From contig NZ_KE384393.1 in assembly GCF_000425505.1 (NCBI RefSeq), positions 1 through 64,000 on the forward strand: 64,000 nucleotides of DNA. Direction: 5' to 3'. Below, piece by piece: positions 11,862 through 17,105 of this stretch. Position 1 is the first letter of the stretch. Each line of letters opens with the position of its first letter. Made by a program: the position numbers and the translations under genes. The DNA comes from Flavobacterium frigidarium DSM 17623 (lineage in GTDB: Bacteria; Bacteroidota; Bacteroidia; Flavobacteriales; Flavobacteriaceae). The notes under the pieces are model-generated. The model did not search any database. It saw only the letters and a list, made by a program, of their open reading frames with translations, and was not told where the DNA came from.

Positions 11862-14800
11862 CTACTTTTTAATCAAGTATTTTATATTTCTGTTTTTACC
11901 ATTAATTACTGTTTTAAGGAAATAAAACCCTCTTCGCAATTTTGATAATTCTAAGTTAGTAACAGATTTGCCAGCTGCAATCTCTTGAGAAGACTGACTT
12001 ACTAATTGACCATAAATATTATAGATGTAGAAATCAGCTTTGGCTACAGCCGTACTATTAATACTAACATTTACATGACTAGCAAACGGGTTAGGGTAAA
12101 CCATCACATTTGTAATTACACAAGAATTATCAGCAATAGTATCGTCGCAGTTTCCTAGCGTGTCACCATGCGCTAGATGCGCTCTCACAGCATACTCATC
12201 TACACATATCGTTTTTCCTTTATGGCAAATCTCGACTTTAGGAAAACGTTTGTTATTTCCACAAGACACGTCTTGCACATTTACGGTGCGCTCTGTAATG
12301 GCAGTACAACCCACAGCATCAGTTACTGTCAGCGTGTAGGTTGTAGTTTGGTCAGGACACACTTTTATCGAAGGGGTTTTTGCACCGTTACTCCATTCAT
12401 AAGAAAACGGAAGTACACCACCTATAATATTCTCTGCTTTTAATGTTGCATACGCTTGCGGGCTATACCCTTTATAAACAGTTACTTCATCTGCTGTTGG
12501 GATTTCGATCTCTCTAGATTCTTCAATAGTAAATGATTTAGTTACTGTTTGTTTGACAGCATCTTCTACTACTACAGTGTACATTCCTACAGCTAGATTC
12601 GTGATTTCTGAAGTTGTTGAGCCGGTATTCCAAGTGTACGTATACGGACTAATACCGCCAGAAACAGTAATATTTGCAAACCCTTCTTCGTTACCAAAAC
12701 AAATAGTATTCGAACTAGAAGCAGTTTCAATTTTTAAATCTTTCAATTTTAAACGCACGGATACCGGGAAGTGATCTGAAGCTGTTTTTGTATAGGTACT
12801 AGAGTAAAATTCATAATGTACTCTTGCTGTTTCTGAAATATAAGACGTAGCTAACTCATTAGAAAGTGTGATGTGGTCAATCATATTTTCATAAGTAGCA
12901 TACGATCTAAAACCGTTATCACTAAGTGACTTTGTAGGAATAAAATATCGTGCATTATCAGCTACGTATGCATCATAAGAAGATGTTGTTGTAGTAACAT
13001 CAGATACAGTAAAATCTACATCATCATTATAATCACCTAGAAGAATTAAGTTAGCATCAGGATACTGCATATCTAAACTATCTTTTAGCATTTCTACATC
13101 AAATTTACGCATATCGTATTTTTCTTGTGCTCCACCAGAAGTATTCGCTCTAGCATGTAAATCAATAATATTTATTAATTTTTCGGAACCATCGATAGTT
13201 ACATTTGCTGTTAACATGAATGGCATTCTTCCGCTAGCAAAAAAGCGCGTTTTATCCTCAGTTGGGTAATTTACAAGAGCCGAAACATCACCACCATTGT
13301 AATAAGGATGTACTGTTTTTAATAATACCTTAGTACTTACCGGTTTTACCGTTTTATTTTTATAAATGAATCCTACCTTTTGAGAAGCAGTTGAGGTATC
13401 ATTAGGATATGAAGTGGCGTTCGAAAGTACGTAGCTGTAATCGTTCATCTCGCTAACCATTTGTTGGAATAAAACTTCATCTGAAATTTCTTCGACAGCA
13501 TAAATGTCTGCGTCTAGGTTTTGTAAAACAGCTTTCACAGCTTCTTTTTGAACCTCATCAGCATTAGCTTGACCTACTGTAGGAGCATTTTTCTCATCAC
13601 CAAACCAAGCGATATTCCAAGTAACAATATCTAATGTTTTATCTTTAGAAATGGCTAAGTCATTACCTGATTGTTGGTATTTAGCAGCACATGGGAAATC
13701 ACTTTTCATTCTAGGCAATAATTGTTGTGTCGCATAAAAATTAGAAATCACACCTATAACCTCTGAACAATTTTCAGGTTGGCTAAAGCCAGTTAGATCT
13801 GCCACATCAGCATCTAATCTAAATTGTGCCTTTGCTGTGGCGTCAGTAATATCAACACTTGAATTACCAAAAATAATAGCACCTGGTTTAGCAAATACAG
13901 GATTTTGAATGCGAACTAATTCAGCTGGGTGCGCACTCATTTCTGATAAAGTGATCGTAAGGGGCGTAATTAATTGGCTAGCCTGTCCGTTGCTTTTTAC
14001 TGCGCTAACGGGACTGATTTGCACTTGTTCATTGTAGGTACTTTTGTTTCCTGTAATTGTAAGTGACTCACCAATTTTGAATAAACCTGCTCCATGAACT
14101 GTCTTGTCAAAAACAGCAATTGCGCCCGTCGCATCTTGAATGTAAGCAGAACCCCCTAATTGATCAGATACAGTTAACGTTCCCGTGATTGTTACTATTT
14201 CACCGTCTGCTTTTGCTCTTGCTTCAGCAATTGGTAAAACGATAAGAGTGTCGGCTACATCTTTAAAAAATTGCCCCGTATTAATTGCTCCAAATGTTGC
14301 TGTTGTAGCTTGCCAAGTAAAATCACTGTACTTAAATCCTGCTCCAGTTAATTGTAACGAAGTACCAATTGAAGCAGTACTTGCTTCAGCGATACCAATA
14401 TCTGTACTCGTAATCCCGTTTGCAGGACCATTTGTCGCTGTAAAACTACCTTCATAGCTTAAAAATTGAACTGCTTTTCCTTCTGGGTTAACCAATGCAA
14501 GTCCGTCAGGAGAACCATTTTGTAAACCAGGGATGGCTACATAAACTGTTCCGTATCCATTACTTTGATTTGGAATGCTTCCTGATAGTGCACCAATAGG
14601 TGTATAACTCGCGCCATTAGATCCGTTATAAGGTACAATCGTCCAATTTGTCAAGTCAGTTCCCGCATAACCAGCGATTTCTACACCTTCATTCTCATCT
14701 GTTCCAGCATTATCATAGTGAATCTCATTAATGAAAACCAAATCACCAAAGTTTTGTCCTGTATTCACTGAGCCAAAAGTATTTGTTGCTGCCTCCCATG

Positions 14801-17105
14801 TAAAGTCGGTATATTTTGTTCCTTTCCCAATTAGTTGTAAAGAGGTTCCAATAGTTGCCGTACTCGTTTCAGAAACGCCAATATCTGTACTCGTCATTCC
14901 GCTTGCAGGACCATTTGTCGCTGTAAAACTCCCTTCGTAACTTAAAAATTGTATAACATTATCGTTGTTATCTACTAACGCAACTCCGTCTGGAGCTCCA
15001 TTTTGTAAACCAGCGATCGCTACCGATACTGTTCCATAACCATTTGCTTGATCTGGAATTATTCCTGACAAAAGTCCAATAGGAGTGTAGCTAGCACCAC
15101 CGCTACCATTGTAAGGAATAATTTTCCAATTTGTAATATCAGTTCCTGCAGGTCCCGCAATTTCGATACCTTCGTCAAGATCTGTACCTGCATTGTCATA
15201 ATGGATTTCGTTTATAAAAACAGTGATAGATGTAGTCGTAGCAATTCCTTTTAAAGTACTTACTTCGATAGCAGCGCTAGGCTCTGAACTTTCATCTGCT
15301 TCATTGATTGCTCTAACAGTAAAATTGTAAGCTGTGTTTTCTTTTAAATTTGATAAAGTGACACTGTTAGTAGTAACTGTTTCTAATTCTTCGTCATTAT
15401 TGTAAATAGTGTATGCAGTTCCATTAGACAGATCCCACGATAAAGTGACCGAAGTAGCAGTAATGTTTGAAGCTACTAAATTTGTAGGAGCTACTAATTT
15501 AATAGCTACTTTAGTAAAATATTGACCTGCATTTACTGCGTTATAAGTGCTAGTAGTGGCTGCTTGCCAAGTGAAATCAGTATAGTTGTTACCAGTACCT
15601 ATAAGTTGCAAAGACAATCCAGCCGCATCTAGTCCATTTTGTATAACTCCTATGTCTGTGCTTGTCATTCCGATTGCCGGACCATTTGTTGCAGTAAAAC
15701 TTCCTTCATAGCTTAAAAACTGAACGACTTCACCAAGATTATTAACCAGTGCTAATCCATCAGGTGCACCATTTTGAAGTCCGCTGATAGCAACAAAAAC
15801 GGTTCCGAAACCATTTGACTGTTCAGGAATTGCTCCAGAAAGTACTCCTGCTGGAGTATAACTTGCTCCGCCGTTTCCGTTGTATGGAATAACAGACCAA
15901 TTGCTTAAATCAGTACCTGCCGTTCCAGCAATTTCAACACCTTCTCCTAGGTCAGTCCCTGCATTGTCATAATGAATTTCGTTAATAAATACTGTAGCAA
16001 CAGGGTTTGTTGTTGCAGCGGCAGCAGTTGTAAAAGTAACGGTATTACTAACAAGAGAATTGTTTCCCGCAGCATCAAATGCTTTGATAGTAAGAGTGTA
16101 AGTAGTACTTGCTGTTAAGCCTGAAAGAGTGTAACTATTATTTTGTGATGAAGCTAAAAAGGTAGTTCCATTAAAAATACGGTATCCTAGAACAGCTACA
16201 TTATCAGTACTAGAAGTCCAGCTAAGCGACGCTGTTTCTTGCGTTATCTTAGTAGCAATAAGATTAGTAGGCGCCGTTGGTGCTTGAGTATCTACAGTGG
16301 CATTTCCAGTGAAACGGTTTTCGGCTTGTGGACCACCCCAAATTGTTGTTGCAAAAGCGGGATTATCTATAAAAGGGTTTCGATTACCTTGAACGCCCTC
16401 TAAAATGGTATTTCGATTCAATTCAAATTGAGAGACAGGATCTTCAATATTCCATAGTAATAAAATATCTGTGATATCGTTGCTAAATGTGCGTGCTCCT
16501 ACAGTAACATTTGCGGGTAAACATTGCTCGCCATAGCGCAAGTACATATACATCAGCATTCGAGCGACATCACCTTTCCATTCATCACCAGGGTAGAAAA
16601 AAGTGTTATTGATAAGACTAGCATTCCCTGATCCAGCTCCATACGGGTAATTGCTTCTTGTTGCGTTAAAAGCGATATCAGAAGCTCTTAAATGATGTGC
16701 ATCACTTCCAGGCCCCGAAGTTCCTAAATTAGGCACTCCTAAAGATTTAGCATAAACGTGTTCGCGATTCCATTGACCCGCATTCCCACCATTGGCATCC
16801 TTAGAGCGAGTTCGATCATTGCTTGTATCATTATCACTATCATTGTAGCCGTAAACGAGTAATACATTATTAGGATTTGCAGGGTCTAAGTCGGTTAATT
16901 TAAGTGCGTCCCATACTCCAGGTGTATAGCTTAGTGAGGTTGTATTGGCACTAATTAATTGAGATAGTGTCGCCTTTAAGGTATTCCCGGTTTGGTTGAG
17001 ATTTGTTCCATCATAATAGGAAGGAATTTGTGCAAACGACACTCCATAAAATAATAGAAGCAGCCCGAGTATTTGTAATTTGTTTTGAATGTAAAGTTGT
17101 TTCAT
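11862..17105 (-). CDS. Secreted dual nuclease: EndA-type plus DNase I-type, T9SS substrate
   Basis: 1747 residues. In order: signal peptide (1-25); endonuclease I domain (about 30-255) with WNREHVYAKSLG and DAHHLRASD, the His-Me finger signature; fibronectin III (270-360); lamin-tail-like module 1 (370-530); fibronectin III (537-620); lamin-tail-like modules 2 and 3 (about 625-950); OB-fold-like module (955-1140); endonuclease/exonuclease/phosphatase domain (1160-1460) with DIVTWNIAWFG, ILLGDYNDD and ASDHFPV; two SprB-like repeats (1465-1620); and a type IX sorting domain (VYPNPFASHVNV to the end). It should be exported by T9SS and degrade extracellular DNA or RNA, feeding on nucleic acid or loosening biofilm. 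It has its own promoter region and is not in an operon. Confidence 0.9.
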   Translation of the reverse strand: MKQLYIQNKLQILGLLLLFYGVSFAQIPSYYDGTNLNQTGNTLKATLSQLISANTTSLSYTPGVWDALKLTDLDPANPNNVLLVYGYNDSDNDTSNDRTRSKDANGGNAGQWNREHVYAKSLGVPNLGTSGPGSDAHHLRASDIAFNATRSNYPYGAGSGNASLINNTFFYPGDEWKGDVARMLMYMYLRYGEQCLPANVTVGARTFSNDITDILLLWNIEDPVSQFELNRNTILEGVQGNRNPFIDNPAFATTIWGGPQAENRFTGNATVDTQAPTAPTNLIATKITQETASLSWTSSTDNVAVLGYRIFNGTTFLASSQNNSYTLSGLTASTTYTLTIKAFDAAGNNSLVSNTVTFTTAAAATTNPVATVFINEIHYDNAGTDLGEGVEIAGTAGTDLSNWSVIPYNGNGGASYTPAGVLSGAIPEQSNGFGTVFVAISGLQNGAPDGLALVNNLGEVVQFLSYEGSFTATNGPAIGMTSTDIGVIQNGLDAAGLSLQLIGTGNNYTDFTWQAATTSTYNAVNAGQYFTKVAIKLVAPTNLVASNITATSVTLSWDLSNGTAYTIYNNDEELETVTTNSVTLSNLKENTAYNFTVRAINEADESSEPSAAIEVSTLKGIATTTSITVFINEIHYDNAGTDLDEGIEIAGPAGTDITNWKIIPYNGSGGASYTPIGLLSGIIPDQANGYGTVSVAIAGLQNGAPDGVALVDNNDNVIQFLSYEGSFTATNGPASGMTSTDIGVSETSTATIGTSLQLIGKGTKYTDFTWEAATNTFGSVNTGQNFGDLVFINEIHYDNAGTDENEGVEIAGYAGTDLTNWTIVPYNGSNGASYTPIGALSGSIPNQSNGYGTVYVAIPGLQNGSPDGLALVNPEGKAVQFLSYEGSFTATNGPANGITSTDIGIAEASTASIGTSLQLTGAGFKYSDFTWQATTATFGAINTGQFFKDVADTLIVLPIAEARAKADGEIVTITGTLTVSDQLGGSAYIQDATGAIAVFDKTVHGAGLFKIGESLTITGNKSTYNEQVQISPVSAVKSNGQASQLITPLTITLSEMSAHPAELVRIQNPVFAKPGAIIFGNSSVDITDATAKAQFRLDADVADLTGFSQPENCSEVIGVISNFYATQQLLPRMKSDFPCAAKYQQSGNDLAISKDKTLDIVTWNIAWFGDEKNAPTVGQANADEVQKEAVKAVLQNLDADIYAVEEISDEVLFQQMVSEMNDYSYVLSNATSYPNDTSTASQKVGFIYKNKTVKPVSTKVLLKTVHPYYNGGDVSALVNYPTEDKTRFFASGRMPFMLTANVTIDGSEKLINIIDLHARANTSGGAQEKYDMRKFDVEMLKDSLDMQYPDANLILLGDYNDDVDFTVSDVTTTTSSYDAYVADNARYFIPTKSLSDNGFRSYATYENMIDHITLSNELATSYISETARVHYEFYSSTYTKTASDHFPVSVRLKLKDLKIETASSSNTICFGNEEGFANITVSGGISPYTYTWNTGSTTSEITNLAVGMYTVVVEDAVKQTVTKSFTIEESREIEIPTADEVTVYKGYSPQAYATLKAENIIGGVLPFSYEWSNGAKTPSIKVCPDQTTTYTLTVTDAVGCTAITERTVNVQDVSCGNNKRFPKVEICHKGKTICVDEYAVRAHLAHGDTLGNCDDTIADNSCVITNVMVYPNPFASHVNVSINSTAVAKADFYIYNIYGQLVSQSSQEIAAGKSVTNLELSKLRRGFYFLKTVINGKNRNIKYLIKK
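14260..15998 (-). repeat. Three copies of a lamin-tail-like module within the nuclease gene
   Basis: The module beginning FINEIHYDNAGTD occurs three times, at about 15998-15516, 15222-14745 and 14738-14260. Each ends with a DFTWxAxT...GxxF segment and contains SYEGSFTATNGPA. Copies 2 and 3 are directly adjacent; copy 1 is separated from copy 2 by a fibronectin III module. Similarity persists at the DNA level, so the copies arose by internal duplication and could recombine. Confidence 0.85.

What the first reader, a model, noticed from the sequence alone, without database searches (positions are those of the whole stretch)
11862..17105. Two unrelated nuclease folds fused in one T9SS-exported protein
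An EndA/NucM His-Me finger domain at the N-terminus and a DNase I-like EEP domain near residue 1160-1460 sit in one polypeptide. They are separated by three duplicated lamin-tail-like modules and an OB-fold, and followed by SprB-type repeats and a sorting signal. Both active-site motif sets look intact. It may work as a surface-bound machine for extracellular DNA.
Basis: partly seen in the sequence, partly recalled or inferred. Interest (0 to 1): 0.5.

Follow-up and report, generated by a model that had tools for sequence, protein, structure and literature searches.

The report
Two-nuclease secreted DNA-degrading protein
A Flavobacterium encodes one exported protein that carries two unrelated DNA-cutting enzymes, which other bacteria are known to secrete as two separate proteins; the same kind of fusion turns up elsewhere in the Bacteroidota with different architectures, which suggests that joining the two activities is useful.

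Summary
Window 11862-17105 (minus strand) is one 1747-aa ORF: signal peptide, Endonuclease I (EndI) domain, fn3, lamin-tail-like module (LTD), fn3, two more LTDs, an OB-fold region, a DNase I-like EEP domain, SprB-like repeats and a type A T9SS sorting tail. The catalytic positions of both nucleases are invariant in all sequences aligned (47 EndI, 56 OB-EEP). The EndI model matches Vibrio endonuclease I structures, including the V. cholerae enzyme; the EEP model matches DNase I. The LTD-OB-EEP part is laid out like Xds/ExeM, so one chain joins counterparts of the separate pairs Dns + Xds and EndA + ExeM. It is no artefact: 14 distinct fused sequences were found. Fused EndI heads group apart from standalone ones (weakly supported), while the bodies are not one clade, so heads were lost or moved repeatedly. 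Two further fusions (an unnamed Bacteroidota genome; an Aureibacter plasmid protein) have other architectures. Best reading: an exported two-step DNase, EndI making ends, OB-EEP trimming them. Neither activity nor coupling has been measured. New combination of known parts.

The parts
11862..17105 (-). whole gene, 1747 aa, ATG start
   Evidence: single ORF; same architecture and similar length in 10 further Flavobacterium sequences and one Lutibacter MAG
17031..17105 (-). probable Sec signal peptide, residues 1-25
   Evidence: read from sequence: basic start, LLLLFYGVSFA core; inference, no predictor run
16359..16991 (-). Endonuclease I (His-Me finger) domain, residues 39-249; E115/H116 and N147 are the predicted catalytic positions
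   Evidence: PF04231 E 6.9e-47; invariance; fold match to Vvn and V. cholerae endonuclease I; residue roles recalled from Vvn
16026..16295 (-). fn3 domain 1, residues 271-360
15510..15998 (-). LTD-like module 1, residues 370-532
   Evidence: LTD link
15264..15491 (-). fn3 domain 2, residues 539-614
14742..15227 (-). LTD-like module 2, residues 627-788
14256..14738 (-). LTD-like module 3, residues 790-950
13716..14213 (-). OB-fold region (DUF5689-like), residues 965-1130
   Evidence: DUF5689 in 55 of 56 aligned sequences; beta-rich, high-confidence model
12741..13640 (-). EEP (DNase I-like) domain, residues 1156-1455; N1164, E1206, H1317, D1358, N1360, D1410, D1444, H1445
   Evidence: PF03372; invariance in 56 of 56; DNase I fold
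12279..12728 (-). SprB-like repeat region, residues 1460-1609
   Evidence: PF13573, 2 stretches
12138..12272 (-). small conserved Cys/His segment, residues 1612-1656, no Pfam row
   Evidence: found by its own profile in most close OB-EEP relatives
11880..12101 (-). type A T9SS sorting tail, residues 1669-1742
   Evidence: PF18962 43.4 bits, TIGR04183 36.4 bits, both over cut-off; SprA in genome

Best explanation
It is an exported, type A T9SS-sorted DNase with two different active sites. The N-terminal EndI head (Dns/EndA type) cuts DNA internally and makes ends; the LTD and OB modules hold nucleic acid or the cell envelope; the EEP domain (Xds/ExeM-like) trims the fragments towards nucleotides beside the cell that will take them up as phosphorus, nitrogen and carbon. 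Shown here by sequence and model: domain identity, intact catalytic residues, sorting tail, conservation, and recurrence of the fusion. Inferred: activity, endo-then-exo order, coupling in cis, anchoring, and the nutritional role.
For: Domains. Folds: EndI model against Vvn and Vibrio endonuclease I, Z 14.0-14.6, next unrelated row 4.3; EEP against DNase I, Z 24.9. Catalytic positions invariant in 47 of 47 and 56 of 56. Purifying selection: dN/dS 0.02-0.10 for EndI and 0.05-0.14 for EEP, against 0.11-0.30 for the fn3 linkers. The fusion is kept in 8 of 8 close homologues of a 299-genome Flavobacterium sample. Further fusions with other architectures: L171 and Aureibacter WP_309942540.1. In V. 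cholerae the separate enzymes differ: Dns cuts circular and linear DNA, Xds only linear DNA, and both are needed for best growth on DNA phosphate (PMC3212620, passages; PMC6746945, passages). ExeM has LTD, OB-type and EEP parts and is inactive without the OB-type or EEP part (PMC6085458, passages). Lutibacter, a genus of which one MAG holds the fusion, incorporated carbon from DNA in sediment (PMC8289736, passages).
Against: No assay. ExeM degraded circular plasmid DNA, so an OB-EEP body may be an endonuclease and the endo/exo division may not hold. 17 of 22 family-sample genomes with the full OB-EEP body lack an EndI head in that ORF, so the coupling is dispensable. The bodies that bear a head do not form one clade (AU p 5.2e-5). 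The neighbourhood is shared with L008 and L009 but changes in the other species compared, and no DNA-uptake or phosphate operon was seen, apart from one TonB-receptor-like ORF beside L055.
Confidence: 0.58

Rival explanations
1. No mechanistic coupling: T9SS cargo proteins shuffle modules freely, and two independent nucleases simply share one export tag and anchor; each acts alone, perhaps on different nucleic acids or ions.
For: Head present or absent within one genus (Lutibacter: L016 with it, L017 and L018 without); bodies with the head are not one clade; LTD/fn3 linkers vary in number and type outside Flavobacterium.
Against: At least three architectures join the same two enzyme families; the linkers between them are kept in all 11 Flavobacterium sequences and the LTDs are about as constrained as the enzymes.
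Confidence: 0.27
2. The EEP domain is a phosphatase or nucleotidase that removes phosphate from EndI products or from sugar phosphates.
For: The EEP superfamily holds phosphatases; Bt3783 mannosyl-6-phosphatase is tied with DNase I in fold comparison (Z 24.4 against 24.9); 6 of 56 sequences also match PF22669 Exo_endo_phos2; where DNase I has E78 (recalled) the profile has a near-invariant Gln, Q1242, 55 of 56.
Against: Named families matched among the 56 sequences are mainly nuclease models: ExeM/NucH 51, MnuA 44, exonuclease III (xth) 19; the rest are a generic EEP family 3, another exonuclease III model 3, an M949_1556 lipoprotein 2 and a stress OB-fold 1 (the window's two matches lie far below curated cut-offs). 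The best PDB sequence matches are an unnamed-function EEP protein (9sf9) and DNase I. An OB-fold region precedes it, as in ExeM/Xds.
Confidence: 0.1
3. One of the two domains is a catalytically dead binding module.
For: Not excluded by sequence alone; only one of the five EndI models was confident.
Against: The predicted catalytic positions (recalled) are invariant in both sets and dN/dS is low.
Confidence: 0.05

Closest known systems
Dns (VcEndA) and Xds of Vibrio cholerae
   Same: EndI-family endonuclease plus LTD-OB-EEP nuclease, both extracellular (PMC3212620, PMC6746945, passages)
   Different: two separate genes in an organism of another phylum; here one polypeptide with three LTDs, fn3 linkers and a T9SS tail
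EndA and ExeM of Shewanella oneidensis
   Same: same two enzyme classes; ExeM = LTD, OB-type region, EEP (PMC6085458, passages)
   Different: separate proteins; ExeM ends in a GlyGly/TM anchor
ExeM/NucH family (NCBIfam NF033681)
   Same: 51 of 56 aligned sequences match it, the window's OB-EEP at 36.7 bits; the LTD profile matches the LTD of a Loktanella member
   Different: far below the 300-bit cut-off, which the Loktanella protein passes with 549.8
T9SS-dependent endonuclease of Riemerella anatipestifer (AS87_RS02955; NF052644)
   Same: a nuclease exported by T9SS (review table)
   Different: model of 251 positions; no second nuclease named; protein not examined here
Aureibacter tunicatorum plasmid pAT2 'endonuclease' WP_309942540.1
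   Same: EndI and EEP with LTD and T9SS tail in one 1627-aa protein
   Different: order LTD-EndI-EEP, no DUF5689 row, MBG domain

Membership tests
Endonuclease I (PF04231) | score over curated cut-off across the whole domain | tested here: met
   160.6 bits against 25, profile 1-234 of 235
Endonuclease I (PF04231) | EH motif and metal-binding Asn of the His-Me finger | tested here: met
   E115, H116, N147 invariant in 47 of 47; residue roles recalled from Vvn
Endonuclease I (PF04231) | non-specific nuclease activity | not testable with these tools
   needs an assay
EEP / DNase I-like (PF03372) | score over curated cut-off | tested here: met
   40.3 bits against 24.5; 56 of 56 aligned sequences match
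EEP / DNase I-like (PF03372) | N, E, H, D/N, D, DH catalytic set | tested here: met
   invariant in 56 of 56; the DNase I E78 position (recalled) is a Gln here; roles recalled
ExeM/NucH (NF033681) | curated cut-off of 300 bits | tested here: not met
   36.7 bits; annotated Loktanella member 549.8 bits
ExeM/NucH (NF033681) | LTD, then OB, then EEP | tested here: met
   layout of ExeM and Xds from passages
T9SS type A cargo | C-terminal sorting domain over cut-off | tested here: met
   PF18962 43.4 against 27; TIGR04183 36.4 against 23
T9SS type A cargo | host has the translocon | tested here: met
   SprA 2780.5 bits; other components not searched
T9SS type A cargo | T9SS-dependent export shown | not testable with these tools
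   needs a mutant
Lamin tail domain (PF00932) | score over cut-off for the window modules | tested here: not met
   no PF00932 row; relationship only through relatives
DUF5689 (OB) | score over cut-off for the window's own region | tested here: inconclusive
   27.1 against 28.6 bits; some relatives over it

The most novel reading that the evidence does not exclude
The fusion is a cis-acting cut-and-chew DNase: EndI makes ends that are handed over along the LTD/OB arm to the EEP domain of the same molecule, so that polymeric DNA is turned into nucleotides at the cell surface without losing intermediates to neighbours. Bacteroidota have built this at least three times and have dropped or exchanged the head repeatedly, as a selfish-uptake strategy for extracellular DNA.
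Probability: 0.35. Interest if true: 0.6.

Novelty: new variant of a known kind. Interest (0 to 1): 0.45.

Why it matters
Extracellular DNA is an important phosphorus source in marine sediments, and Bacteroidota are named as potentially among the main users (PMC8289736, passages). The best-known models have two separate secreted nucleases; a natural fusion is evidence that the two work on the same substrate and gives one protein in which endo/exo coupling, surface retention and the unsettled role of bacterial LTDs (PMC6085458, passages) can be tested by point mutation.

Tried and rejected
Artefact of assembly or frameshift: rejected, because independent genomes carry the same full-length ORF. 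DNA-utilisation operon: neighbours were compared with the window for ten loci (L008-L013, L015, L016, L055, L056) and ten neighbouring ORFs of L013, L015, L016, L055 and L056 were named, nine of the window. L008 and L009 share the window's efflux and kinase genes; elsewhere there are a P-type ATPase, a reverse transcriptase, enzymes of metabolism and, beside L055, a TonB-receptor-like ORF; a dnaJ-like gene lies within a few kb in several. No shared partner. ExeM/NucH membership by cut-off: not met. Single clade of fused bodies: rejected by AU test, on a tree with two long rows (L077, L075). Single group of fused heads: fits the best tree (16 of 16 apart from 31 standalone), but that branch has support 49/15 only, and two of the 16 (L060, L066) are counted as fused on the guess that contig ends split them; an earlier pair of trees with fewer standalone heads was less clear and needed 2-3 changes of label. 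Promoter motif: the TAnnTTTG scan of the 447-bp upstream gap gave no match. Literature: the titles listed by nine searches (several listings capped) named no EndI + EEP fusion; subscription papers are mostly not held. OB identity rests on DUF5689 and on OB-fold family rows of relatives; the 9sf9 OB stretch is very weak (i-E 65), and the structure comparison rows cover the EEP part.

Full report
OBSERVATION. Pfam and NCBIfam place Endonuclease_1 at 39-249 (E 6.9e-47), fn3 in two stretches, Exo_endo_phos at 1161-1445 (E 3.7e-10), SprB repeats, and a type A T9SS tail over both curated cut-offs. Profiles made from the segments of this protein give the order EndI, fn3, LTD1, fn3, LTD2, LTD3, OB, EEP, SprB-like, a short Cys/His segment, sorting tail. 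The three LTD-like modules are 71-74% identical to one another and 90-95% to the modules at the same place in the nearest relative, L008. They give no Pfam LTD row themselves, but their profile matches the LTDs of relatives L055 and L058 and the LTD of an annotated ExeM/NucH nuclease of Loktanella (L203, E 7e-53).

FOLDS AND ACTIVE SITES. AlphaFold2 on 47 aligned EndI domains gave mean pLDDT 83 for the best of five models (the others 68 to 43). Its matches are Vvn and Vibrio endonuclease I entries, including V. cholerae extracellular endonuclease I (2g7e, 2g7f, 2vnd): VIA Z 14.0-14.6, rmsd 2.7-2.9 over 161-166 residues; the next row has Z 4.3. OB-EEP, from 56 sequences, gave pLDDT 94.6; DNase I leads (4awn Z 24.9, rmsd 2.8 over 244), tied with a Bacteroides EEP protein (3mpr, 24.8) and the mannosyl-6-phosphatase Bt3783 (24.4), so fold alone does not decide nuclease or phosphatase. 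By sequence profile the PDB matches are Vvn/EndI for the head, and for the body 9sf9/9sf8, an EEP-domain protein (whole-sequence E 1.8e-6; its EEP stretches align, its OB stretch only with i-E 65), then DNase I (5.1e-5). Named NCBIfam families matched by the 56 OB-EEP sequences are mainly nuclease models: ExeM/NucH 51, MnuA 44, exonuclease III (xth) 19; four minor rows cover 1-3 sequences each. E115, H116 and N147 are invariant in 47 of 47 heads; N1164, E1206, H1317, D1358, N1360, D1410, D1444 and H1445 in 56 of 56 bodies; the position of DNase I E78 is a Gln in 55 of 56. The catalytic roles are recalled from Vvn and DNase I. Nei-Gojobori dN/dS of the window against up to four relatives (L008, L009, L014, L011) is 0.02-0.10 for EndI, 0.05-0.14 for EEP, 0.03-0.12 for the LTDs and 0.11-0.30 for fn3; many dS values exceed 1 and some could not be computed, so only the contrast should be read.

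DISTRIBUTION. In a family sample of 299 genomes, PF04231 occurs in 169 and an OB-EEP match at E <= 0.001 in 67; 22 hold the whole OB-EEP region at E below 1e-80. Of these 22, 3 carry the EndI head in the same ORF (window genome, G275, G186), 2 (G252, G051) show head and body on ORFs that each run off a contig end, and 17 have no head in that ORF. In 299 genomes of the window's own genus, 93 have some match; 8 have the close, whole-length one (73-100% identity) and 8 of these 8 are fused. The 8 best EndI matches of the same sample lie in those same ORFs; the next ones (62% identity and less) lie in other frames, mostly 300-400 aa and none longer than 910 aa among those listed (listing capped). 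From named genomes (17 loci), 10 are whole length (9 Flavobacterium, one Lutibacter MAG), 2 Lutibacter lack the head, 1 is partial and 4 match in EndI only. In a phylum sample, 71 of 345 genomes have a match at E <= 1e-30. I read the architecture of 49 of the 71 in full: 3 are fused (window genome, G327, G724). For 8 more, about 230 N-terminal residues were not in hand, and 14, with frames of 334-648 aa, were not read.

HISTORY. On a tree of 47 heads the 16 fused (two of them by the contig-end guess) stand apart from all 31 standalone heads; 13 of them form a starred group (97/92), but the branch for all 16 is weak (49/15; 51% of bootstrap trees). On a tree of 36 bodies the fused ones are scattered, and one clade is rejected (16 against 19 rows, one row left out of the count; AU p 5.2e-5). 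So a single origin of the head followed by several losses, or transfer of the head between bodies, fits; Lutibacter shows both states. Two more fusions look separate. L171 (G724, sharing only the phylum with the window genome) has EndI (28% identical to the window head and no nearer to the fused heads compared than to standalone ones), Calx-beta, LTD, OB, EEP and a T9SS tail. Aureibacter tunicatorum pAT2 WP_309942540.1 (1627 aa, annotated 'endonuclease') has LTD, EndI, EEP, MBG and a T9SS tail, with the EndI motif in place. Independence is judged from architecture and, for L171, identity, not from a tree holding all three.

MECHANISM. V. cholerae Dns, an EndI-family enzyme, cuts circular and linear DNA; Xds only degrades linear DNA; each allows growth on DNA phosphate and both together do it best (PMC3212620 and PMC6746945, passages). 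S. oneidensis has EndA and ExeM apart; ExeM consists of LTD, an OB-type region and EEP, and loses activity without the OB-type or EEP part, while LTD loss has a smaller effect; ExeM does degrade circular plasmid (PMC6085458, passages). The window protein joins both classes in one T9SS cargo. I therefore propose end-making by EndI and trimming by OB-EEP. The order of action, the coupling in cis and the anchoring are inference. The ExeM result on circular DNA is a real warning that the body may cut internally too. A T9SS-exported nuclease has precedent in Riemerella (review PMC10202324, passages; NF052644). The neighbourhood changes between species and offers no shared partner genes, though a TonB-receptor-like ORF lies beside L055. 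The host genome has SprA.

NOVELTY. Each part is known; the joined protein, its retention in a Flavobacterium group and its recurrence appear in none of the titles listed by the nine paper searches made (listings partly capped). One such protein is already in a public record under the name 'endonuclease', so the sequence class is deposited, not studied as far as these searches show. New variant of a known kind.

Noticed in passing
window 12138-12272 (residues 1612-1656): A conserved ~45-aa Cys/His segment (pattern ICHKGKTICV...AHLxHGD..GxC) sits just before the sorting tail in most close OB-EEP relatives and has no Pfam row; perhaps a small metal-binding module at the sorting junction.
   Followed up: partly
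L001 / G000:C8:1096-1782: The only other Endonuclease I copy found in this genome has an in-frame TGA and its closed 371-aa ORF starts inside the domain, so the fused head may be the only intact EndI of this genome.
   Followed up: partly
L202:1948-6831: Aureibacter tunicatorum plasmid pAT2 carries an EndI + EEP fusion in a different domain order, next to genes annotated as Rpn-family nucleases/transposases.
   Followed up: partly
L079, L080, L095-L098 (Flavobacterium): 62 of 299 Flavobacterium genomes (E 7e-61 to 4e-47) have an alternative T9SS EEP protein. In six read in full (1151-2041 aa) the first ~730 residues match neither the EndI nor the OB profile; one (L079) has a choice-of-anchor J domain there.
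   Followed up: no
L013:12699-13814: A reverse transcriptase (RVT_1, 372 aa) lies right beside the fused nuclease gene in F. frigoris DSM 15719; ORFs of similar size lie there in L010 and L012 (not identified).
   Followed up: no
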